Positions 18,298-27,223 of a stretch of DNA of 59,843 nucleotides are shown here, piece after piece. This DNA comes from Nitrosomonas sp. (GTDB lineage: Bacteria; Pseudomonadota; Gammaproteobacteria; Burkholderiales; Nitrosomonadaceae), in contig JAMWZR010000014.1 of NCBI GenBank assembly GCA_024282035.1, forward strand, positions 1-59,843, read 5' to 3'. The notes under the pieces are model-generated. The model was not told where the DNA came from. It worked only from the letters and a program-made list of their open reading frames with translations, and made no database searches. Position 1 is the stretch's first letter; each line of letters opens with the position of its first letter. The position numbers and the translations under genes were made by a program.

Positions 18298-18945
18298 TTA
18301 TTTGTTCTCCATCGTACTAATGAAGGCATTGGCTTCATTGATGGATTTTTCCATGGAAGCCACCAGGGCGGACACATCGGACTGGATGTTGCCCAGTTCG
18401 CCCTTCAGCGAGGCAATGGCCCGTGCGTTGAGGTTGTGCTTGAGGTACATGACCTGATCGTGGAATACGGTCAGAACCGGCTGAATCTTGGCTTCCGCCT
18501 GCTTCATCGAGGTGATCAGTTGGCGGTAATGCACTTGCGTGGCATCCAGCTTTTTCTGACTGTTCTGTTTCATCGTCGGATTGCTGTATTGCGTGATTTC
18601 CTGTTTCCATTCGTTAAATAGCGCTTCGGATACGCTCTCGATGTCGGCGATACGGCTTTTGACTTCCTCTGCCTTGCTCAGACTGGCTTCATAGCTGTCG
18701 TTCAGGCGCTTGTAAGTGGCTTCCAGATCACCACCGTCAAAACGTGTGGCAGCGGTAAACTGCTCCAGTGCCGATTTGAACTGTTCTTTGGTTTCCTGTT
18801 GCGTATCGCGTGCTTTTTCCACGCGGTAGACCATTACATCCCGCTTGGGAATACCCACCTTTTCCAGCCCCTCGAGATACATCGTGGAACAGGCGCCGAG
18901 CAGCAGGATCAATGAAAGCATGATGAAACGATAGGCAGTATTCAT
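18298..18945 (-). CDS. DUF2959-family lipoprotein
   Basis: A 215-residue precursor with a lipoprotein signal whose lipobox is LLGAC (Cys19). The mature part is almost wholly helical and coiled-coil, beginning MYLEGLEKVGIPKRDVM, the DUF2959 hallmark. Function unknown; envelope-located. A Shine-Dalgarno GGGAGA precedes the ATG. It follows the Tam41-like gene by 72 bases in the same direction, so it may belong to the lipid cluster, though DUF2959 genes also occur alone. Confidence 0.82.
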   Translation of the reverse strand: MNTAYRFIMLSLILLLGACSTMYLEGLEKVGIPKRDVMVYRVEKARDTQQETKEQFKSALEQFTAATRFDGGDLEATYKRLNDSYEASLSKAEEVKSRIADIESVSEALFNEWKQEITQYSNPTMKQNSQKKLDATQVHYRQLITSMKQAEAKIQPVLTVFHDQVMYLKHNLNARAIASLKGELGNIQSDVSALVASMEKSINEANAFISTMENK

Positions 18946-19017: not shown

Positions 19018-19998
19018 TCAGCGTATTGCACCGCGGCGGAATAATTGCCAAATGATCTTGTAACCCCCTAAAAAAGGATGCTGGCGCAATTCCGGTGTAA
19101 CTTCGATGTGAAAACCGGTGTGGCGTTCGATCTTCCAGGCTGCGTAGTCGACGCTGTTTGCAAATGTGAAGGTAGCTTTGAACAAGCGCAGTATCGATAG
19201 AATGCGACCTTGCCAGCGACGCATGCGCCATTGCCACAATGCCTGCTGCTGTACTTCCGGGTGGGTCAGGCATTGATATTTGCCATTTTCCAGTCTTTCC
19301 AGGCTACCTTGCAGCATCGGTGCGGCAACTTCAGTCAGACGGATCAGCGCATCACGGTTGACTTGGGCCAGATGGGCCGCGCGCGTTTCCCGTTCGGCAC
19401 GCAGTTCGGACGCATAGGTCAGCGTCAAGCAGCGGGTCCAGATCTCTTCCACGGTGTACACGCCGGCCTCCAGAGCCGCAGCACCTCTTTTCAGAAAAGT
19501 GACGACAGCATGACCCAGTGCAGTATGGATGCGTTCGCGGATCAGGTCGTTGCGGGCATATAAAAGTCGTGATGGCTGAGCAAAACGTGCCCAGATGTAG
19601 GAGTGAAACCAGTATTGCGCACCATTGGTAAAGTCATCGGTTGAAATGACGGCATATTTTGCCCGCAGTGTTCTGTTTTGGTGAGGTACTTCCAGATAAA
19701 ACACATTGGGGGCCAGCCATTTGTTCATAAAGGCCAGATGGCGTTGCGGATAGGCACGGAAATAATTGTCGACGATGACATACAGATCGACGATGCCTTC
19801 ATCCAGGCTGCTTGCGGAATGCAGGCAAGATCCATACAGCATGACGGCATCGAGTGATTCGCCAAAGCGCATGATCAACGCATCGACCAAGGGAACGAAG
19901 TCGGGGGATACTGGCTTGTTGCATTCCCAAGCGACTTCATTGGTCAAGCGGATCGGCAATGATTCACCGGATGTGGAAGAGATAATGGAGTCTGTCAT
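19018..19998 (-). CDS. Tam41-like nucleotidyltransferase (putative CTP:phospholipid cytidylyltransferase)
   Basis: The 326-residue protein resembles the Tam41/Mmp37 family, which in mitochondria makes CDP-diacylglycerol from phosphatidic acid and CTP. The nucleotidyltransferase signature is visible as LYGSCLHSASSLDEG (~54-68) followed by the acidic VDLYVIVDN (~70-78). Further family-like stretches are RAKYAVIS near 126 and WARFAQPSRLLYA near 150. It begins 13 bases after the lipid-kinase gene and is surely co-transcribed. In this context it may cytidylylate the phospholipid made by that kinase. The assignment is from pattern recognition; the substrate is unknown. Confidence 0.65.
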   Translation of the reverse strand: MTDSIISSTSGESLPIRLTNEVAWECNKPVSPDFVPLVDALIMRFGESLDAVMLYGSCLHSASSLDEGIVDLYVIVDNYFRAYPQRHLAFMNKWLAPNVFYLEVPHQNRTLRAKYAVISTDDFTNGAQYWFHSYIWARFAQPSRLLYARNDLIRERIHTALGHAVVTFLKRGAAALEAGVYTVEEIWTRCLTLTYASELRAERETRAAHLAQVNRDALIRLTEVAAPMLQGSLERLENGKYQCLTHPEVQQQALWQWRMRRWQGRILSILRLFKATFTFANSVDYAAWKIERHTGFHIEVTPELRQHPFLGGYKIIWQLFRRGAIR

Positions 19999-20011
19999 GA
20001 TAATTCGTGTC

Positions 20012-21016
20012 CTATAGCACTAAAAAAGTTACAAGATCAGTCGCGCTGACTTGTAAGGGAATATTCGGGCCGAGCGAACGGTATAGTTCGCCATCGACTA
20101 TGTATTCATCGTCCAGATGCAGGGTAATCGATTGGGTGTTGTGGCTGTGGTAGCCATCCTGTTCCAATAATGCCTGACCATTTCCTGTGAGCAGCGGCCA
20201 CAGTGATCGCCACAGATGCTTGGGTTGCTGATCGGCCCAGGTCACATGCAGGGGAGCCGATTCTCGTCCCCAGTAGGGGCGTATGTTCAGCAACAGACAA
20301 TCCAGTGCACTGATCAATGCAAACAGGTAAGTTCCTTGATTTATGTGACCATTGTCTTGTGTCATGGTCATGGTAACGGGCGCCCATTCATCGTGTTGAC
20401 GCCCCGTCATCATACCGCTAATCATGCCCACGAGCGATCGCAACATGATCAGAAAGGTGAAGATGCCACCGGTAATTCCCAGTTGTTTGACTGGGCTGCG
20501 GGAAAATTTTACCCCCCGCGCTACCAGACCAACGGCGAAAAACATGCCATAGAGTGTATCCATGCCCGGTTGTTCGATCCGGAGTACCGGGCGCTGTCGC
20601 AACTGCAATGCTTCAGGCTTGACCAGCATCGATCGTAACCGGCGCAGGATCTGTTCCGGCTTGCCACGCATGCCGAGATCCAGTGGCGTCATGTTGGTGG
20701 TGCCACCGGGCACGATCATCAATGCTGGCCAGTTTTCCACGGATATGGCATTGAACAGGTGGCCCAGTACGGCATGGGTGGTGCCGTCGCCGGCGATGAT
20801 GACCAGCAAATCGAGATCGGCTTGCAATAAGCGTTTCATCGCTGACTGGAATGTATTGGTATCATTGGCTTCGCAGACCAGCAAATCGGGCATGCTGGTC
20901 AGAACCTGCCGGATTGCAGTACCGCGTTTGCGGACCTGGCCGCTGTTCGGATTCAGCAGACAGCCGACCTTGGCTGATCCGGTCCGGAGGCGATCGATCC
21001 GTGTGGTTGACGTCAT
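20012..21016 (-). CDS. Diacylglycerol/ceramide-kinase-type lipid kinase
   Basis: A DAGK-catalytic-domain protein that phosphorylates a lipid hydroxyl with ATP. From the ATG at 21014-21016 it has 334 residues: GCLLNPNSGQVRKRG (18-32), the nucleotide loop IIAGDGTTHAVLGHL (73-87) and PGGTTNMT (103-110), all intact. The open frame runs 37 codons further upstream but overlaps the preceding gene. The chosen ATG lies 16 bases after that gene's stop, although no strong Shine-Dalgarno is visible. Neighbours (CDP-alcohol transferase upstream, Tam41-like downstream) suggest that it makes the phospholipid acceptor or precursor of a special membrane lipid. Diacylglycerol, ceramide or another lipid alcohol are all possible substrates. 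Confidence 0.82.
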   Translation of the reverse strand: MTSTTRIDRLRTGSAKVGCLLNPNSGQVRKRGTAIRQVLTSMPDLLVCEANDTNTFQSAMKRLLQADLDLLVIIAGDGTTHAVLGHLFNAISVENWPALMIVPGGTTNMTPLDLGMRGKPEQILRRLRSMLVKPEALQLRQRPVLRIEQPGMDTLYGMFFAVGLVARGVKFSRSPVKQLGITGGIFTFLIMLRSLVGMISGMMTGRQHDEWAPVTMTMTQDNGHINQGTYLFALISALDCLLLNIRPYWGRESAPLHVTWADQQPKHLWRSLWPLLTGNGQALLEQDGYHSHNTQSITLHLDDEYIVDGELYRSLGPNIPLQVSATDLVTFLVL

Positions 21017-21032
21017 GGGGTGCGGAAGATTG

Positions 21033-22271
21033 TCAAGAGTTATGCGAGCGATGGGAGGTGCCGAGTTGGATGGGCGCACGGGTAAAGATCCGCACCGCCA
21101 GAATGTCGCGATCGCGTGCCGGATCAATGTCCTGCAACCAGGATGTCAGCGTGCCACCGCTTTGCTTGATGCGCCAGGCCAGTAACAGTCTCCAGCAGAG
21201 AAAACCGGTGGAAAACAGATGCCACACCACCACCAGGATGAGTGCAAATGCAGGCCGATCGGTCAGCCAGCCATACGTCAGTATCAGCAAATTGGGATTG
21301 CGCCGTGCCGTGATGAGACGATTGAATGAATCCATTTTGCGCCAGATGAACAGATCGAAGGTGGCTAGCCAGTAATTGAAGGCGCCTTCGCACAGTCGAC
21401 CGCCGACGTACCCGATGAGCATCAGCGTCATCAGGAATCCCTGCGCAAAGATGGGTGTCGCCGTGCTGGACAGACCTACGCCCCAGGCAATATACCAGAG
21501 CGGGGGATGCACGATGTCCAGACCATGATCCATGACATCGCCGAAACGACTGGATGTGACCGTGACGCGAGCCAGCTTGCCATCGACGGTATCGAGGAAA
21601 GTCATGAACCAGCCCATCAGCAGACCCATGCCAAAAAAGCCATACCAGAATGCCATACCGGCCAGTACTGCAAGGACTACGCTCAGATAGGTGACGTGAT
21701 TCGGTTGCCAGCCGTAGCGCACGCACCAATGCGTGACTCGGTAAGCTGGCCAGGGCCAAACCCATTTGGTCACCAGATCGGTGACGCCCTTATAGGAGCC
21801 CGAAAATAGTTCCTGCTCCAGCGCAGTCTGGTTGGCTGCTGTGACCGGCAAGATATAGGGTGGATCTTTCTTTTTCAGGTTTTGCTGGAAATCGATATTG
21901 AGATCGGCCAGGGTAATGTGCGGGATGGTCAACAGGGCAAACTTGTAGTTCTGGTCCGGATTGTTGTTCAGGCTGCGCAGTACCTGCGTGGCCAGACTGC
22001 CATCGGTACGGATGGCGGCAGGGAAACCTTCCTGGCTATACAGTGCCACTTTTCTGTCGATACCCAGCATGGCGGTCAGTACGCGTGCATCGAACAGCAT
22101 GTTGGCATTGAGGAATAGCACCGTGGCATCGACCGGGATGCTTTCCACGTCATCAATCAGCTTGATGCTGATGTGGGCGGCCAGCATGCGCAGCAAGCGT
22201 TCGCGACCGGTCAATCCCCAGATCGTGATGGTGCTGTCACCAAAAATATGAATATAGGTAGATGTCGGCAT
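21033..22271 (-). CDS. Two-domain CDP-alcohol phosphatidyltransferase with degenerate nucleotidyltransferase domain
   Basis: A 412-residue protein numbered from the ATG at 22269-22271. A TTG two codons earlier is possible. The N-terminal ~155 residues look like a nucleotidyltransferase fold (GLTGRERLLRML, ATVLFLNANMLFDARVL) lacking the usual LAAGxGxR loop, so probably inactive. The C-terminal membrane domain carries the complete CDP-alcohol phosphotransferase signature DTVDGKLAR-x8-GDVMDHGLD, with the four metal aspartates at D227, D230, D248 and D252, and about six membrane segments. This order resembles fused cytidylyltransferase/di-myo-inositol-phosphate-phosphate synthases. The product is unknown; it should join a CDP-activated alcohol to a polar or lipid alcohol. 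Confidence 0.8.
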   Translation of the reverse strand: MPTSTYIHIFGDSTITIWGLTGRERLLRMLAAHISIKLIDDVESIPVDATVLFLNANMLFDARVLTAMLGIDRKVALYSQEGFPAAIRTDGSLATQVLRSLNNNPDQNYKFALLTIPHITLADLNIDFQQNLKKKDPPYILPVTAANQTALEQELFSGSYKGVTDLVTKWVWPWPAYRVTHWCVRYGWQPNHVTYLSVVLAVLAGMAFWYGFFGMGLLMGWFMTFLDTVDGKLARVTVTSSRFGDVMDHGLDIVHPPLWYIAWGVGLSSTATPIFAQGFLMTLMLIGYVGGRLCEGAFNYWLATFDLFIWRKMDSFNRLITARRNPNLLILTYGWLTDRPAFALILVVVWHLFSTGFLCWRLLLAWRIKQSGGTLTSWLQDIDPARDRDILAVRIFTRAPIQLGTSHRSHNS

Positions 22272-22387
22272 GTGCAAAAAATTGGGTTGTGTCAGCGTGA
22301 ATCAACTCGTGTGATCAGGATATGCACGCATTTTCGTTGCGTACTTCGCGATTGTAGTGTTTTTAGGACTCCATTGACAGATAAAGA

Positions 22388-23449
22388 CTAAAAAGTTCGG
22401 CTCAGCCACAAGTTTGCCAGTAGGATCATGGTTAAACCGGGCGCCAGGGCAACGAGTGCCGGGTTGAGGTGAAGAATCAGTCCAGCATTGGCAATGATCT
22501 GATCCAGTAAATACACCGCCATGCCGATCAATGTGGCCAGAATCAGCTTGTTGCTCAGACCGGAGCGGATCGAACCGAACACGAACGGAATGGATAGCAA
22601 CAACATGGCGATCGTCATCAGCGCACTACCCACCTTGCGCCAAAGTGCCAGAGCATAGGAATCCGCATCCTGCCCAGTGCTGCGCAGAAATTCGACATGC
22701 CGGGCCAATTCCAGTGGAGAAAGGCTTTCAGGGGGTTTGGTCAGGGTCAGGATATCTTCCGGATTCAGGAACGACTGCCATTCATACGTGTCATGACGAG
22801 ACAAGGTAATCTGGTCATTCTCGAATGTGCGGATGGTCACTTGACTGAGTCTCCAGTCATCGTCACTGATGATGTCTGCGGATTGCGCCAGAATATGCGA
22901 TTGCAGAAAACCTTGCGGATCGAGTTTCAGGATCTCGATATCGACGGCGTGCTTACTATGCGACATGCGCCCGATACGTAAAATGTTATGTTCGTTGCGT
23001 GTCCAGATTCCCAGGTTACGGCCTAGCTCCGCGCTCAGTTCCAGGGCGATGGCACGGTTGGTGATAGCCAGCTGCTGGAGTTGGGGTGCCACAAACTGCT
23101 CGAGTAGGGCGATACCCAATAACATCATGATACCGATGCTCAAAGGCGCCCAGCTGATGCGGAGGGGAGAAAGCCCGGCTACACGCATGGCGACGAGTTC
23201 CGAGTGAACGGCCAGCTTACCCAGGGCAAAAACCGTACCCAACAAGGCCACAAAAGGTGCGATCTGGATGAACCGTCGCGGCATCAGCATCGCTGTATAT
23301 AGAAAGGCATCGACAGCGCGATACGTGCCTTTGCCGACATCTTCCAGTTGATCCAGCAGATCAAAGAAGCTAAAGAGCGGCAGCAGGATGGCTGTGGAAA
23401 TCAGAAAACCGATAGTGACCTGATAGGCAAGATAACGATAAATAATCAT
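22388..23449 (-). CDS. lptG: LptG-type permease of the lipid cluster
   Basis: A YjgP/YjgQ-family protein of 353 residues with six predicted membrane segments around a periplasmic beta-jellyroll (~140-270). It starts MIIYRYLAYQVTIGF at the ATG 23447-23449, which overlaps the LptF stop as ATGA. The 26 residues upstream in the open frame lie inside lptF. The family forms, with LptF and the LptB ATPase, the inner-membrane LPS extractor. FFDLLDQLEDVG and MRVAGLSPLRI match LptG more than LptF. Because it sits inside a lipid-biosynthesis cluster, it may be a paralogue that handles another lipid. Confidence 0.8.
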   Translation of the reverse strand: MIIYRYLAYQVTIGFLISTAILLPLFSFFDLLDQLEDVGKGTYRAVDAFLYTAMLMPRRFIQIAPFVALLGTVFALGKLAVHSELVAMRVAGLSPLRISWAPLSIGIMMLLGIALLEQFVAPQLQQLAITNRAIALELSAELGRNLGIWTRNEHNILRIGRMSHSKHAVDIEILKLDPQGFLQSHILAQSADIISDDDWRLSQVTIRTFENDQITLSRHDTYEWQSFLNPEDILTLTKPPESLSPLELARHVEFLRSTGQDADSYALALWRKVGSALMTIAMLLLSIPFVFGSIRSGLSNKLILATLIGMAVYLLDQIIANAGLILHLNPALVALAPGLTMILLANLWLSRTF

Positions 23450-24525
23450 GTTGCGCGGGGCGTTCGTTTGTAGTGAGTGAGCCAGGCGTATGTTATCAAT
23501 ACCAGGATCATCAGCAGTTCCAGCCACCAGACACCAGGTATTCTGCCGATGGCACCCTGTTCGACCCAGGTTTTGGCCAGTCCGGCTAGATTATAGTAGG
23601 CGGCAAAGACCAGTGCGGCGAAGACATAGGTTCTGTCGGTTTTGTCCTGGCGTGGGGCAATACGGATGAATGTGACGGCGATCAGAGCCAGTAGAATGGT
23701 TGCCAGAGGGCGGGAAATCCGCCACTGTAGTTCCGCAATGTCGCGTGGTTGGTCGGATTCCCACAATGTTCGCGTTGCCGCAGCTTTGCGGCGGTAATTA
23801 GTCACATAATCGTTATCGATGAAATAGATCATGCTTTTGAACTGAATGATATCGTCGACATTGGCCGCGCTGGCCAATTGATACGCTATGCCATCGGAAA
23901 GCTGGATGTGAGGACGTGGTTCGGTGGTGGTCGGCTGAATCTGATGCGCTTCCTTGGCGATGACGATCTCGCTGCCATCAGGCTTTCTGATGTAATGAAA
24001 GATGTGCTGCATTTCCTTGTTCAAATCGTTTTTGCTGCGCACGTAAACGACTCTGCCGCTGCGTTCGCTGCCATAGAAGCGACCTGCCTGGAACCGATTG
24101 GTGTTCAACTCTGCTTCCGCCTGCGCATCCAGAACGTAGCTTTCTGCATAAGCCCAGGGACGGACATACGAGGACAGCATGCCACTGACGATGCCGATTG
24201 GGATCGCGATCGTCAGTACCGCAAGAACTATGCGGGTTCCACTGATGCCGAGTGAACGGATGACGTTCAGTTCCTGGTCTTTGTTGAGTCTGCCCAAACC
24301 CATGATGATGGATATGTATAGGGCGATGGGAATAAGCACTTCCAGCGCGATCAGGGTTTTCAGAAAAACCAGTTTCAGTAGCGCAGCCAAACCCAGTGTT
24401 TCGGTCACTGCGCCCGCCAGCAATCTGGCACTGACGAAACTAGCGTACAGGCCGACCAGAATCAGGATGACCACCGTGAAAGGCAGCATGATTTCGCGGG
24501 CGATATAGCGCTCTATCAGTCTCAT
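23446..24525 (-). CDS. lptF: LptF-type permease of the lipid cluster
   Basis: A YjgP/YjgQ-family protein of 359 residues: N-terminal membrane segments (~13-33 and ~50-75), the coupling region LNVIRSLGISGTRIVL near 87, a periplasmic jellyroll (~125-245) and three C-terminal membrane segments. It is coupled to the lptG-type gene by an ATGA overlap. The opening MRLIERYIAREIMLPF differs from what I recall of housekeeping betaproteobacterial LptF (MIF-R-L-RE type), which is why I suspect a specialised copy. Assignment as F rather than G rests on order and size. The ATP-binding partner LptB is not in the window. Confidence 0.75.
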   Translation of the reverse strand: MRLIERYIAREIMLPFTVVILILVGLYASFVSARLLAGAVTETLGLAALLKLVFLKTLIALEVLIPIALYISIIMGLGRLNKDQELNVIRSLGISGTRIVLAVLTIAIPIGIVSGMLSSYVRPWAYAESYVLDAQAEAELNTNRFQAGRFYGSERSGRVVYVRSKNDLNKEMQHIFHYIRKPDGSEIVIAKEAHQIQPTTTEPRPHIQLSDGIAYQLASAANVDDIIQFKSMIYFIDNDYVTNYRRKAAATRTLWESDQPRDIAELQWRISRPLATILLALIAVTFIRIAPRQDKTDRTYVFAALVFAAYYNLAGLAKTWVEQGAIGRIPGVWWLELLMILVLITYAWLTHYKRTPRAT

Positions 24526-24589
24526 GGATTTATGGACTCACCGGTATGAATATGTTCAAGAATAGCATTGATGATGAACTGCGAGGGTA

Positions 24590-25435
24590 TTACCTGGTGA
24601 AGGATGTGTCAGATTTGGCGGGATGATGTGGGTCGCCGAGAATGGATTCCGCCAGTTGCAGGTCTTCCGCTTTGTCAACATCCACCCCGGCGCGAGGGTC
24701 GTCGAGAACGACGATACGTATCAGGATTCCGGCTTTTTTTGAAACAGCATCCAGCCCTTGGTGTACTGTCAACGATCCAAACAGATACGACCACACCGTC
24801 CCGAATCCGAGCACTCGTGCGATCAGTCGCCAAGGCCGCTTGCGCAGTACTTCCGCTTGCCGCCAGAAACCGACTAAAGAGCGTCCTTGCGGTTTGAACA
24901 TGAACAAGTTGCAACCACAGAAACCGCCTTCACGCAGGCGGATGACCGTGCGTTTGGAGCCCGGAAACGCTGCAGCGATGTCCTGCTCCCTGACTGTTGC
25001 CACGACGGCATCGCCATCTTGTGCCATGGCAGCGCCTAAAAAATTGCGTACGATTTCGGGTGTCAGCAGGGCATGATCGGCTGTGGTCAACAGTACCGGA
25101 ACATCGGCGGGAATCTGCTGCAAACCGCTTTCCGCGCTGCGACTCGGCGAGTCCAGATTGGGTATCCAGGTGACCTGCTTGGCAGCGATGCGCCGTTGGA
25201 GTTCGGAGCAGTGCGTATGCAGTGATTCCGGTGGGCCGCACAAGACGATGGTGTCGATCATTTCACATGCCGCCAGTGCATCCAGAACGCGAATCACCAT
25301 CGGTGTACCCGCAACCGGCGCAAATGCTTTGCAGGCTGCACCGGTATGCAATGTGATCGGGTCTTTTCCGGTGCGATCAGCAGCCAGCACGATGGCGGCA
25401 AAACGAGGAAGAGTGGATAGCGGAGCTTGACTCAC
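24590..25435 (-). CDS. MobA-like NTP transferase (nucleotidyltransferase) of the lipid cluster
   Basis: A 281-residue GT-A-type nucleotidyltransferase. FAAIVLAADRTGKDP (12-26) is a modified form of the LAAGxGxRMG loop. It is followed by CKAFAPVAGTPMVIRVLDAL, the lysine and dimer segment typical of the MobA/IspD/sugar-NTP group, and a metal-binding TTADHALL near 117. It probably makes a nucleotide-activated small alcohol or sugar phosphate, a possible donor for the CDP-alcohol transferase downstream. The start is GTG (25433-25435), overlapping the stop of the GNAT gene as GTGA, so the two are coupled. Which nucleotide and substrate cannot be told from sequence. Confidence 0.7.
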   Translation of the reverse strand: MSQAPLSTLPRFAAIVLAADRTGKDPITLHTGAACKAFAPVAGTPMVIRVLDALAACEMIDTIVLCGPPESLHTHCSELQRRIAAKQVTWIPNLDSPSRSAESGLQQIPADVPVLLTTADHALLTPEIVRNFLGAAMAQDGDAVVATVREQDIAAAFPGSKRTVIRLREGGFCGCNLFMFKPQGRSLVGFWRQAEVLRKRPWRLIARVLGFGTVWSYLFGSLTVHQGLDAVSKKAGILIRIVVLDDPRAGVDVDKAEDLQLAESILGDPHHPAKSDTSFTR

Positions 25436-26586
25436 AGTGTTTTTCCAAAGATGCGATAGCGTTTGTACTGCTGGCAGCCGATGTTATCCAGAATGGCGCG
25501 CATGGACTTGTTGTCTTCAAGAATCCAGGACAATTCGACCTCCTTGAAGCCTTGCGCCATGCCTGCCTCACGAGGTGCATCAATGACCAGGCACGCCAGA
25601 ACCAGCCCGATAGGGCGATTATGATATTGCTTGCGAACGCCCATCAACGGGACACGACCCATGCGAATCTCGTGATTCCTGATGCTTCGAACTAGTTTGA
25701 GCCAGCCTAGTGGAAACAGGCTGCCATCCAGTTCCTTCAGTACTTCATTGAGATTGGGGAGCCCCACCATGAAAGCTGCCGGTTTGCCGTCCACTTCTGC
25801 GATCTGGATAAACTCATCGGAAACCAGCAGGCGCAAACTGCTGCCCAGTTCAGCAAATTCTTCCCGGGTGAAGGGGATGAATCCCCAGTTTTCCGACCAG
25901 GCATCGTTGAAGATATCGCGCAGGATTTCCATCTCTTCGGCGAATCGATCCCGGCGAAGGGTGCGCAGGGTGATTTGCGGAGAAAATCGCTTGATCAGCA
26001 TCTGCATGACGGGTGGAATTTCAAAATCGATTCTGACTTTGTAAGCCAGCAGATCCTTGAGTGGCAGATAGCCATGCTGTTCCAGCAGGCGACCATACCA
26101 GGGTGCTGAATGCGGCATCATGACTACCGGCGGTGTATCGAATCCTTCTACAAGAATTCCGCATTCCTGATTGATCGAAAGATTGAAGGGGCCACTGATT
26201 TTGTGGATTTGTCTGGAGCCAAGCCATGCTTCGACATGCAGCATCAAAGCCGAGAAGACGTCATCATCGTCGATACATTCCAGCAGGCCAAAATGCCCGC
26301 TGTCGGTGCCATAACGCTCCTGATGCAAGGAATCGATTTGCGCGCTGATCCGCCCCACCGGTTGTTCGTTGCGATAGGCCACCCAGGCTTGCCACTCACC
26401 ATGTTTGAAAAAAGGATTGAAACGGGAAAAATGTAAGCGTCGTTCCAGACGTAAAGGCGGTACCCACATGGGGTCATTGGCATAAATGTGCCATGGCACA
26501 TCGATGAATTTTCCCATGTCGCGGTAGGACATCACTGGACGCACGACAACGCTACCTAAGCCGACCGTATTACTTTGTGTGTTCAT
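25432..26586 (-). CDS. GNAT-fold N-acyltransferase (YghO / bacterial ceramide-synthase-like)
   Basis: A 384-residue protein with a duplicated GNAT-like architecture: an N-terminal half with YANDPMWVPPLRLER (~35-49) and PVGRISAQID, and a C-terminal half with VDGKPAAFMVGLPN and VELSWILEDNKSM. The opening 'VPWHIYANDPMWVPPL' is characteristic of the YghO-like group. My recollection is that bacterial ceramide synthase of Caulobacter belongs near this group, which would fit a sphingolipid-type pathway. That is inference, not shown here. It is the first gene of the leftward lipid cluster and is coupled by GTGA to the NTP transferase. Confidence 0.65.
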   Translation of the reverse strand: MNTQSNTVGLGSVVVRPVMSYRDMGKFIDVPWHIYANDPMWVPPLRLERRLHFSRFNPFFKHGEWQAWVAYRNEQPVGRISAQIDSLHQERYGTDSGHFGLLECIDDDDVFSALMLHVEAWLGSRQIHKISGPFNLSINQECGILVEGFDTPPVVMMPHSAPWYGRLLEQHGYLPLKDLLAYKVRIDFEIPPVMQMLIKRFSPQITLRTLRRDRFAEEMEILRDIFNDAWSENWGFIPFTREEFAELGSSLRLLVSDEFIQIAEVDGKPAAFMVGLPNLNEVLKELDGSLFPLGWLKLVRSIRNHEIRMGRVPLMGVRKQYHNRPIGLVLACLVIDAPREAGMAQGFKEVELSWILEDNKSMRAILDNIGCQQYKRYRIFGKTL

Positions 26587-26746: not shown

Positions 26747-27223
26747 TTAAATTTCGGTATGTTTCAGTAGTTTTTCAATCAAACCATGCAGTACCACTTT
26801 CGGGTCGGGTTCCTGGCTTGCTGCGTTTGCGCCATCACCCGATGCCGGTTGTTCTGCAGCGGCACATTTTTCATCGGTGATGTTGCGACAGAAATCGCAA
26901 AAATTATTCCAATCCGTGTTGTAGCTGAGCAGTCGATTCTGTGGAATGAATACGCGCAGAATTTCAAAATTTTGCTGCATTTCAGGCAGGCGTGAGCACA
27001 GATAGGAATTGATGTTTCTTGGCCAACCCTTGTGTTGTGGATACATCAGTGCCAGTTCGGTTTCGATGGTGTTGCGGAAGTCTTCGATGGCTAGGGTGCG
27101 GCGCTTGCGATTCAACAGGTCAATCGCCAAGGCCACCAATCCGAGGAATCCAAAGAAAATGAAAGGCCACAAGGGTACATTTTCGAAGTAGGCAGCTATT
27201 TGGTTAAGGTTTTCGTCGTTCAA
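26747..27223 (-). CDS. Hypothetical protein, one membrane segment
   Basis: A 158-residue protein that I do not recognise. A single membrane segment (~18-37, WPFIFFGFLGLVALAIDLL) is followed by a basic NRKRR and a cytoplasmic-looking domain with two CDFC/C residues (~110) and an Ala/Glu-rich linker before a C-terminal helix. The start is TTG (27221-27223). An in-frame TAA two codons upstream excludes any earlier start, and GGGGT lies near the ribosome-binding position. It is in the same direction as the lipid cluster but 160 bases upstream of it, so it may have its own promoter. Confidence 0.6.
   Translation of the reverse strand: MNDENLNQIAAYFENVPLWPFIFFGFLGLVALAIDLLNRKRRTLAIEDFRNTIETELALMYPQHKGWPRNINSYLCSRLPEMQQNFEILRVFIPQNRLLSYNTDWNNFCDFCRNITDEKCAAAEQPASGDGANAASQEPDPKVVLHGLIEKLLKHTEI

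What the first reader, a model, noticed from the sequence alone, without database searches (positions are those of the whole stretch)
19018..26586. Co-directional cluster that looks like a complete pathway for an unusual membrane lipid
Seen: a leftward series with GTGA/ATGA overlaps and short gaps encodes a GNAT-fold acyltransferase, an NTP transferase, an LptF/LptG-type pair, a CDP-alcohol transferase with intact DG-AR-G-D-D, a lipid kinase with GDGTT and PGGTTN, and a Tam41-like nucleotidyltransferase. Known: each family acts on lipids or nucleotide-activated head groups. My recollection is that Caulobacter makes anionic ceramide lipids using a GNAT-like ceramide synthase and a DAG-kinase-type ceramide kinase. 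Inference: N-acylation, phosphorylation, cytidylylation, head-group transfer and export of a sphingo- or phospholipid. I know of no described pathway with exactly this gene set. Serine palmitoyltransferase and a ceramide reductase are not in the window.
Basis: partly seen in the sequence, partly recalled or inferred. Interest (0 to 1): 0.78.

Follow-up and report, generated by a model that had tools for sequence, protein, structure and literature searches.

The report
Sphingolipid cluster in LPS-less Nitrosomonas
A block of seven genes in an ammonia-oxidising Nitrosomonas bacterium looks like the machinery to finish and export a charged sphingolipid, in a genus that appears to have lost the usual outer-membrane lipid (LPS), so the exporter that normally carries LPS probably carries this sphingolipid instead.

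Summary
The cluster is real. Its seven genes (19018-26586, minus strand) match a GNAT-fold ceramide synthase, a CofC/MobA-like NTP transferase, LptF, LptG, a CDP-alcohol transferase, a ceramide-kinase-like DAGK and a Tam41-fold cytidylyltransferase. The genome is a Nitrosomonas. Spt, AcpR, CerR and AasR form an operon on another contig. The pathway is not new: it is the Caulobacter ceramide-phosphoglycerate (CPG/CPG2) pathway, with orthologues in N. eutropha in print (PMC11324152).

New here: (1) LpxC is absent from 37 of 37 genomes of the genus but present in 24 of 24 genomes of other genera in the order, while LptD is kept in 36 of 37. N. europaea's missing lipid A genes were published in 2010. 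(2) The window's LptF and LptG are this genome's only pair. By phylogeny they belong to a sphingolipid-linked type, not the order's LPS type (p-AU 8e-5). (3) Of 397 sampled Pseudomonadota, 30 of 34 LpxC-lacking genomes carry this ceramide synthase; 27 of those 30 have LptF/LptG within 20 kb of it. (4) In 19 of 80 related loci the kinase and the Tam41-like enzyme are one protein, supporting CDP-ceramide as the unknown CpgC product.

No lipid was measured; head group and export cargo are inferred.

The parts
25432..26586 (-). Ceramide synthase-like GNAT protein (CerS; CC_1154 type by gene order), 384 aa
   Evidence: Tandem GNAT fold by AF2; 35 of 37 genomes of the genus; 80 named loci kept of 576 candidates, most titled Nitrosomonas, Nitrosospira or Nitrosovibrio
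24590..25435 (-). MobA/CofC-like NTP transferase; CC_1153-like by position directly after cerS, probably not CpgD (CC_1152); GTGA overlap with cerS
   Evidence: NTP_transf_3 1.4e-16; its profile hits the gene after cerS in three loci with the published Caulobacter order (L206, L208, L210); a different NTP-transferase ORF, identified by eye, lies further on in two of these (L206, L208)
23446..24525 (-). LptF, sphingolipid-linked type; one of only two LptF/LptG genes in this genome
   Evidence: TIGR04407 8e-93; only pair in genome; tree and AU test
22388..23449 (-). LptG, sphingolipid-linked type; ATG start at 23449 (ATGA overlap with lptF), not the listed GTG 23527
   Evidence: TIGR04408 4.1e-94 from residue 28 of the longer ORF; sequence; tree
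21033..22277 (-). CDP-alcohol phosphotransferase with an N-terminal extension of about 180 aa; CpgA/CC_1159-like; motif DxxDGxxAR...GxxxDxxxD intact
   Evidence: CDP-OH_P_transf 5.6e-7 at residues 192-281; motif read by eye in the translation; same neighbourhood as the kinase
20012..21016 (-). DAGK-family ceramide-kinase-like protein (CpgB/CC_1160-like); ATG start at 21016
   Evidence: DAGK_cat 2.8e-14; GDGT and GGTTNM invariant in 12 aligned sequences; start
19018..19998 (-). Tam41-fold CTP:lipid-phosphate cytidylyltransferase (CpgC/CC_1161-like); fused to the kinase in 19 of 80 related loci
18298..18945 (-). DUF2959 protein with a lipobox read by eye, conserved co-directional neighbour in Nitrosomonas; possible accessory
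   Evidence: PF11172 7e-83; adjacent in 19 of 19 genus loci; 34 of 80 named loci, none of those titled Nitrosospira or Nitrosovibrio
26747..27223 (-). 158-aa ORF with a hydrophobic N-terminal segment (read by eye), upstream of cerS in many Nitrosomonas; unknown
   Evidence: No Pfam or NCBIfam match; 44 of 80 loci

Best explanation
This is the late half of a phosphosphingolipid pathway of the Caulobacter ceramide-phosphoglycerate type, together with its own inner-membrane exporter, in an LPS-less Nitrosomonas. AasR, AcpR, Spt and CerR on another contig make the sphingoid backbone. CerS acylates it. The DAGK-like kinase makes ceramide 1-phosphate. The Tam41-fold enzyme makes CDP-ceramide from it. 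The CDP-alcohol transferase, with the NTP transferase supplying an activated head group (probably glycerate-type), builds the anionic head. LptF and LptG, with LptB, LptC and LptA and the retained LptD, carry the lipid to the outer leaflet in place of LPS. Shown by computation: gene content, order, folds, kinship, absence of LpxC, presence of LptD, a single LptF/LptG pair. Inferred: every enzyme reaction, the head group, and the export cargo. LptA, LptB and LptC were not searched for.
For: Gene set and conserved order. Spt/AcpR/CerR/AasR-like operon. Tam41 fold and kinase fusion. Caulobacter genetics and biochemistry of the orthologue families (PMC11324152; PMC12275187). LpxC 0 of 37 in the genus against 24 of 24 genomes of other genera. 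LptD 36 of 37 in the genus, own copy beside surA, pdxA and ksgA. Only one LptF/LptG pair in the genome. LptFG nested in the CerS-linked clade of its class, native origin rejected. 30 of 48 CerS+ genomes lack LpxC against 4 of 349 CerS- genomes.
Against: No lipid has been measured. Only LpxC of the lipid A genes was searched in these genomes; loss of the others rests on one published N. europaea analysis (PMC3087551). A separate CpgD (CC_1152) was not located, so CPG2 rather than CPG is not assured. Some Nitrosospira and Nitrosovibrio loci lack the CDP-alcohol transferase in the cluster. Caulobacter genetics assigns the CDP-alcohol transferase to the second, not the first, head-group addition. 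2 of 37 genus genomes (G003, 76% complete; G019, 91% complete) show neither CerS nor LptF/LptG. 13 of 18 LpxC-bearing CerS+ genomes have no LptF/LptG pair within 20 kb of CerS, and nine of the 18 have one pair only, so CerS does not always travel with its own exporter. Six of 20 same-class CerS loci fetched showed no LptF/LptG in the stretch. Genome counts are not phylogenetically independent.
Confidence: 0.77

Rival explanations
1. Same cluster, but the head group is not glycerate-type: the CDP-alcohol transferase makes a ceramide phosphoinositol-like or other lipid.
For: The best NCBIfam matches of the transferase are archaetidylinositol phosphate synthase (8.9e-13, 48.5 bits against a cut-off of 180) and phosphatidylinositol phosphate synthase (8e-9, 35.5 against 170). 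No dedicated CpgD was found beside it.
Against: Families in the same positions act in CPG/CPG2 synthesis in Caulobacter; PMC11324152 predicts that N. eutropha forms CPG and CPG2.
Confidence: 0.13
2. The enzymes act on glycerolipid (diacylglycerol, phosphatidate), with the Tam41-like protein a second CDP-diacylglycerol synthase.
For: DAGK, Tam41 and CDP-alcohol transferase families act on diacylglycerol lipids elsewhere (Pfam descriptions).
Against: Linkage to the CerS family here, and to Spt/AcpR/CerR/AasR-like genes in other lineages; Caulobacter CpgB is a ceramide kinase (PMC12275187, outline and abstract).
Confidence: 0.07
3. LptF and LptG merely sit here and still export an LPS-like or other glycolipid made without LpxC.
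For: They pass the NCBIfam LPS-export equivalog cut-offs, and LptD is retained.
Against: The native LPS-type pair of the order is missing and this pair is of the CerS-linked type. 27 of 30 LpxC-lacking CerS+ genomes have their pair within 20 kb of CerS. N. europaea has only lpxK of nine lipid A genes (PMC3087551).
Confidence: 0.1

Closest known systems
Caulobacter crescentus ceramide-phosphoglycerate locus CC_1152-CC_1168 (CpgA-D, LptF2/LptG2, CerS, Spt)
   Same: Same families: CerS, NTP transferase, LptF2/LptG2, CDP-alcohol transferase, ceramide kinase, CDP-DAG-synthase-like CpgC, and Spt/AcpR/CerR/AasR (PMC11324152).
   Different: Split over at least two contigs; LptF/LptG are the only pair here, whereas Caulobacter's are described as second versions; no LpxC; kinase and Tam41-like enzyme adjacent, fused in relatives; LptF/LptG belong to the linked clade of its own class, not to the linked clade of the other-class genomes. 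No named Caulobacter sequence was compared.
Nitrosomonas eutropha sphingolipid orthologues (PMC11324152 Fig 7 legend and text; PMC9386255 Neut_0458-0461)
   Same: Same genus, same orthologue set, genes in three regions.
   Different: In what I read (PMC11324152 sections 4, 8, 9, 13, 22 and find; PMC9386255 passages) neither paper connects this with the missing lipid A pathway, the single LptF/LptG pair or the fusion.
Sphingomonas-type LPS replacement by sphingolipid
   Same: LPS absent and sphingolipid present (PMC11324152 introduction; PMC10964400 passages).
   Different: Separate lineage with its own origin of the linked LptF/LptG if family f70 and its allies are Sphingomonads (my guess; genomes unnamed); phospho- rather than glyco-sphingolipid enzymes in the cluster.
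Tam41 (mitochondrial and bacterial CDP-DAG synthase)
   Different: Context and fusion point to ceramide 1-phosphate, not phosphatidate, as substrate (inferred).

Membership tests
Caulobacter-type phosphosphingolipid (CPG/CPG2) pathway | Spt, AcpR, CerR, AasR and CerS in the genome | tested here: met
   Operon on contig C5, L011 8138-12341; CerS in window. Assigned by family, order and gene context, not by comparison with a named Caulobacter sequence.
Caulobacter-type phosphosphingolipid (CPG/CPG2) pathway | Kinase, CDP-DAG-synthase-like protein and CDP-alcohol transferase (CC_1160, 1161, 1159) beside each other | tested here: met
   the same three genes lie beside spt in L206, L208, L210 in the order published for Caulobacter.
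Caulobacter-type phosphosphingolipid (CPG/CPG2) pathway | CpgD (CC_1152) CTP:phosphoglycerate cytidylyltransferase | not tested
PMC11324152 reports at least 13 of 17 orthologues in N. eutropha, naming only CC_1168, 1167, 1166 and 1158 as lacking.
Caulobacter-type phosphosphingolipid (CPG/CPG2) pathway | CPG or CPG2 present in the cell | not testable with these tools
   Needs LC-MS.
LPS export LptB2FGC (canonical) | LptF and LptG over the equivalog cut-offs | tested here: met
   310.9 against 230 and 315.1 against 240 bits.
LPS export LptB2FGC (canonical) | Kinship with the order's LPS-type LptF/LptG | tested here: not met
   Nested in the CerS-linked clade; monophyly with native pairs rejected, delta lnL 96, p-AU 8e-5.
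LPS export LptB2FGC (canonical) | Genome makes lipid A (LpxC) | tested here: not met
   LpxC not found in this genome nor in any of 37 genomes of the genus.
Tam41 cytidylyltransferase family | Pfam PF09139 gathering score | tested here: not met
   21 against 24 bits for the window protein; 16 of the 21 aligned members, the window's included, match at E <= 0.01.
Tam41 cytidylyltransferase family | Tam41 fold | tested here: met
Bacterial ceramide synthase (GNAT type) | GNAT fold | tested here: met
Bacterial ceramide synthase (GNAT type) | Acylation of a sphingoid base | not testable with these tools
   Needs an assay.

The most novel reading that the evidence does not exclude
The whole Nitrosomonas lineage has exchanged LPS for an anionic ceramide phospholipid. 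It lost lipid A synthesis and its native LPS-type LptF/LptG, and kept only a sphingolipid-type LptF/LptG that feeds the old LptD gate, so here the Lpt bridge is a sphingolipid exporter. The lipid is built through CDP-ceramide, a nucleotide-activated ceramide made by a Tam41-type enzyme that some species fuse to the ceramide kinase.
Probability: 0.5. Interest if true: 0.8.

Novelty: new variant of a known kind. Interest (0 to 1): 0.6.

Why it matters
How sphingolipids reach the bacterial outer membrane is stated to be unknown (PMC11324152, section 4), and the CpgC step is called 'an unidentified mechanism' in a May 2026 preprint (PMC13228409, figure legend). A genus with no LpxC, one LptF/LptG pair of the sphingolipid-linked type and a retained LptD is a natural experiment in which the lipid cargo of the Lpt bridge cannot be ordinary LPS. 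The kinase-cytidylyltransferase fusion gives a direct assay for CDP-ceramide. It would also help define the outer-membrane lipid of well-known ammonia oxidisers.

Tried and rejected
First I labelled the NTP transferase CpgD; gene order in Caulobacter-like loci puts it in the CC_1153 place instead. The label CpgD remains in my script outputs.

I considered that LptF/LptG are the order's native pair that moved into the cluster; rejected by the tree and AU test. I also considered one single origin of all CerS-linked pairs in the two classes; rejected at p-AU 0.0056, so recruitment seems independent (fast-mode trees, and only 2000 resamplings, which the program flags as too few for reliable AU values).

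I considered that LpxC absence is an assembly gap; rejected because single-contig genomes of the genus also lack it (G006, G020, G028, G029).

Rows dropped from the second tree against what I held: L225 because LptF was not recovered; L262 and L273, near-duplicates of L261 and L271; L200, L202, L214, L218, L220, L221, L224 and L078. All of these last eight were offered to the first tree, which kept 60 sequences; L078, which has no LptG, does not appear in it. In that first tree the unlinked pairs of L218, L220 and L224 fell with the linked pairs of the other class.

The promoter and terminator scan gave no more hits than shuffles. tRNA scan: none. The PDB sequence search with the CerS profile found nothing at E <= 0.1.

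Not done: search for LpxA/B/D/K, LptA, LptB, LptC or CpgD in the genome (12 of 12 genome searches used); LpxC in the class sample.

The single fused gene in a Nitrosospira multiformis MAG (L147) among unfused sisters may be a second fusion or a sequencing error. The window's own pair is unfused, although its nearest relative L083 sits among fused sequences on a long branch.
Full report

WHERE IT COMES FROM. The window is contig C80 of a 2.93 Mb, 97-contig genome, 98% complete. Most titles are Nitrosomonas, Nitrosospira or Nitrosovibrio; a few are family-level or higher names. CerS identity is 61-97%, nearest Nitrosomonas sp. LK110. Below, 'same class' and 'other class' are the tool's kinship labels; that they mean Gamma- and Alphaproteobacteria is my inference.

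THE MISSING HALF. On contig C5 there is an operon of an AMP-binding enzyme (607 aa, AasR-like), a NAD-dependent epimerase-family protein (303 aa, CerR-like), an acyl carrier protein (85 aa, AcpR-like) and an aminotransferase-family protein (394 aa, Spt-like). AasR, AcpR and Spt of N. eutropha C91 are published as Neut_0458, 0460 and 0461 (PMC9386255, passages).

CONSERVATION. Within the genus 35 of 37 genomes have CerS; G003 (76% complete) and G019 (91%) do not. None of the 24 genomes from other genera of the order in the same call has it, but one further genome of the order (G365) does, without LptF/LptG nearby. In 19 of 19 cluster-bearing genus loci read out, the block stands in the same order; the NTP transferase was not found in 3 of them (L048, L054, L056), unassigned ORFs interrupt the block in 3 (L046, L050, L055), and one ends inside cerS at a contig edge (L062). 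In the 80 named loci: CerS 80, NTP transferase 76, LptF 74, LptG 72, CDP-alcohol transferase 53, kinase 63, Tam41-like 61, counting fused genes for both; some loci are cut by contig ends. Several Nitrosospira and Nitrosovibrio loci lack the CDP-alcohol transferase at this place. In a sample of the class 31 of 370 genomes have a CerS match. Of 20 of these loci fetched, 14 show LptF and LptG in the stretch.

PRIOR ART. The pathway is known. In Caulobacter eleven genes, five for ceramide and six for decoration, make ceramide phosphoglycerate (CPG) and CPG2. A second LptF and LptG in the locus are suggested to move the lipid. Orthologues of at least 13 of 17 genes are listed in N. eutropha, spread over three regions (PMC11324152, abstract and sections 4, 8, 9, 13 and 22 read). 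CpgB is a ceramide kinase and CpgD a CTP:phosphoglycerate cytidylyltransferase (PMC12275187, outline and discussion). What CpgC does is called unidentified in a May 2026 preprint (PMC13228409, passages); PMC11324152 suggested from an InterPro hint that it makes an activated ceramide. That N. europaea has only lpxK of nine lipid A genes, and Nitrosospira multiformis only lpxA, was reported in 2010 (PMC3087551, passages and section 14).

NEW POINT 1: LPS LOST, LPT KEPT. LpxC is found in 0 of 37 genomes of the genus and in 24 of 24 genomes of other genera in the order. Four of the 37 are single contigs. LptD is found in 36 of 37, missing only in a 75%-complete genome and weak (a fragment) in G019. 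In this genome it sits beside surA, pdxA and ksgA; the NCBIfam scores of LptD and SurA are below those models' cut-offs, that of Pfam LptD is above. This genome has exactly two LptF/LptG genes, those in the window. In the genus most genomes have two. G003 and G019 have none and G015 one; some have fragments or weak third matches. G020 has a third full gene, part of a second NTP transferase-LptF piece.

NEW POINT 2: THE PAIR IS OF THE SPHINGOLIPID-LINKED TYPE. In a 65-sequence tree of LptF plus LptG (696 columns), the 10 Nitrosomonadaceae pairs lie inside a clade of CerS-linked pairs from 13 same-class loci (support 1.0), apart from the clade of the order's LPS-type pairs (0.998). G173, an LpxC-bearing genome with two pairs, has one pair in each group. 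Forcing Nitrosomonadaceae with the native pairs costs 96 log-likelihood units (p-AU 8e-5). Forcing all CerS-linked pairs together costs 87 (p-AU 0.0056), so the two classes seem to have recruited LptF/LptG independently. In two of the 13 'linked' loci (L275, L276) the pair is 6 to 7 kb from CerS. LpxC was not tested in the genomes. Rows left out are listed under Tried and rejected.

NEW POINT 3: THE PATTERN IS WIDE. In a sample of 397 Pseudomonadota genomes 48 carry this CerS family and 34 lack LpxC (I take the two draws to be the same 397). Thirty of the 34 are CerS carriers: 30 of 48 CerS+ genomes lack LpxC against 4 of 349 CerS- genomes. The 30 fall in eight families by my reading of the tables, 20 of them in one family (f70) and two in Nitrosomonas itself. 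The Fisher p of 2e-28 therefore overstates independence. Of the 30, 27 have LptF/LptG within 20 kb of CerS, two have the pair elsewhere (G331, G351) and one has none (G193); none has two full pairs. Of the 18 CerS+ genomes with LpxC, nine have four or more LptF/LptG genes and nine have two; in five of the 18 a pair is within 20 kb of CerS. So a CerS gene does not always come with its own exporter pair.

NEW POINT 4: A FUSION. In 19 of 80 named loci (19 of the 61 in which both domains were found) the kinase and the Tam41-like protein are a single ORF of 664-708 aa. Ten or eleven residues separate the domain matches in 18 of them and 19 residues in L147. Seventeen are titled Nitrosomonas (including isolates N. 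ureae Nm13, Nm84, JL21 and N. supralitoralis APG5), one 'uncultured beta proteobacterium', and one is a Nitrosospira multiformis MAG. A fusion of neighbouring enzymes usually means consecutive steps. With the Tam41 fold this points to ceramide 1-phosphate + CTP giving CDP-ceramide. This is an inference; a library search for 'CDP-ceramide' with 'bacteri' found 0 papers.

HOW IT MOST LIKELY WORKS. Backbone by AasR, AcpR, Spt and CerR; acylation by CerS; phosphorylation by the kinase; activation by the Tam41-like enzyme; head-group transfer by the CDP-alcohol transferase with the NTP transferase; extraction by LptF/LptG and delivery through LptD. The weakest links are the head group and the division of labour between the nucleotidyltransferases: the NTP transferase here sits where CC_1153 sits, and the genome was not searched for a CpgD. 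In Caulobacter the CDP-alcohol transferase is needed for CPG2, not CPG, so the acceptor of CDP-ceramide is not settled.

WHAT IS NOT IN PRINT, AS FAR AS SEARCHED. Searches joining Nitrosomonas with sphingolipid, ceramide and LPS terms and sphingolipid with LptF/LptG gave PMC11324152, PMC9386255 and PMC3087551 as the relevant papers. Searches had long result lists of which only 20 and 15 rows were shown. None of the parts I read joins the missing lipid A pathway, the single sphingolipid-type LptF/LptG and the cluster. Only open-licence papers were searched, and supplementary files could not be opened.

VERDICT. Observation confirmed; interpretation right in kind but already described in outline. 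The added value is the LPS-less setting, the exporter's kinship and the fusion.

Noticed in passing
window 18298-18945 (-): A DUF2959 protein with a lipobox (read by eye) directly follows the cluster in all 19 genus loci read out but was not found in loci titled Nitrosospira or Nitrosovibrio; a candidate envelope partner of unknown role.
   Followed up: partly
window 26747-27223 (-): A 158-aa ORF upstream of cerS, conserved in many Nitrosomonas (33-96% identity) with no Pfam or NCBIfam match.
   Followed up: no
L199 (G193:C1:1499000-1517000): A genome with Spt, AcpR, CerR, AasR and CerS together that lacks LpxC and also any LptF/LptG match: how its sphingolipid reaches the outer membrane is open.
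   Followed up: no
L078 (G020:C1:1620000-1628000): A second copy of the NTP transferase-LptF gene pair without the rest of the cluster.
   Followed up: no
L053:1046-2194 (G026:C18): A second, distant CerS paralogue (35% identity) in a Nitrosomonas genome, without recognised cluster partners in the 10 kb fetched.
   Followed up: no
L193 (G068): A locus with two CDP-alcohol transferases of this type on opposite strands, which might be one for each phosphoglycerate addition.
   Followed up: no
L218, L220, L224: In LpxC-bearing genomes with two LptF/LptG pairs the second pair can lie beside the CC_1153-like NTP transferase instead of CerS, and these pairs fall with the linked ones in the first tree: a further sign of a dedicated pair.
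   Followed up: partly
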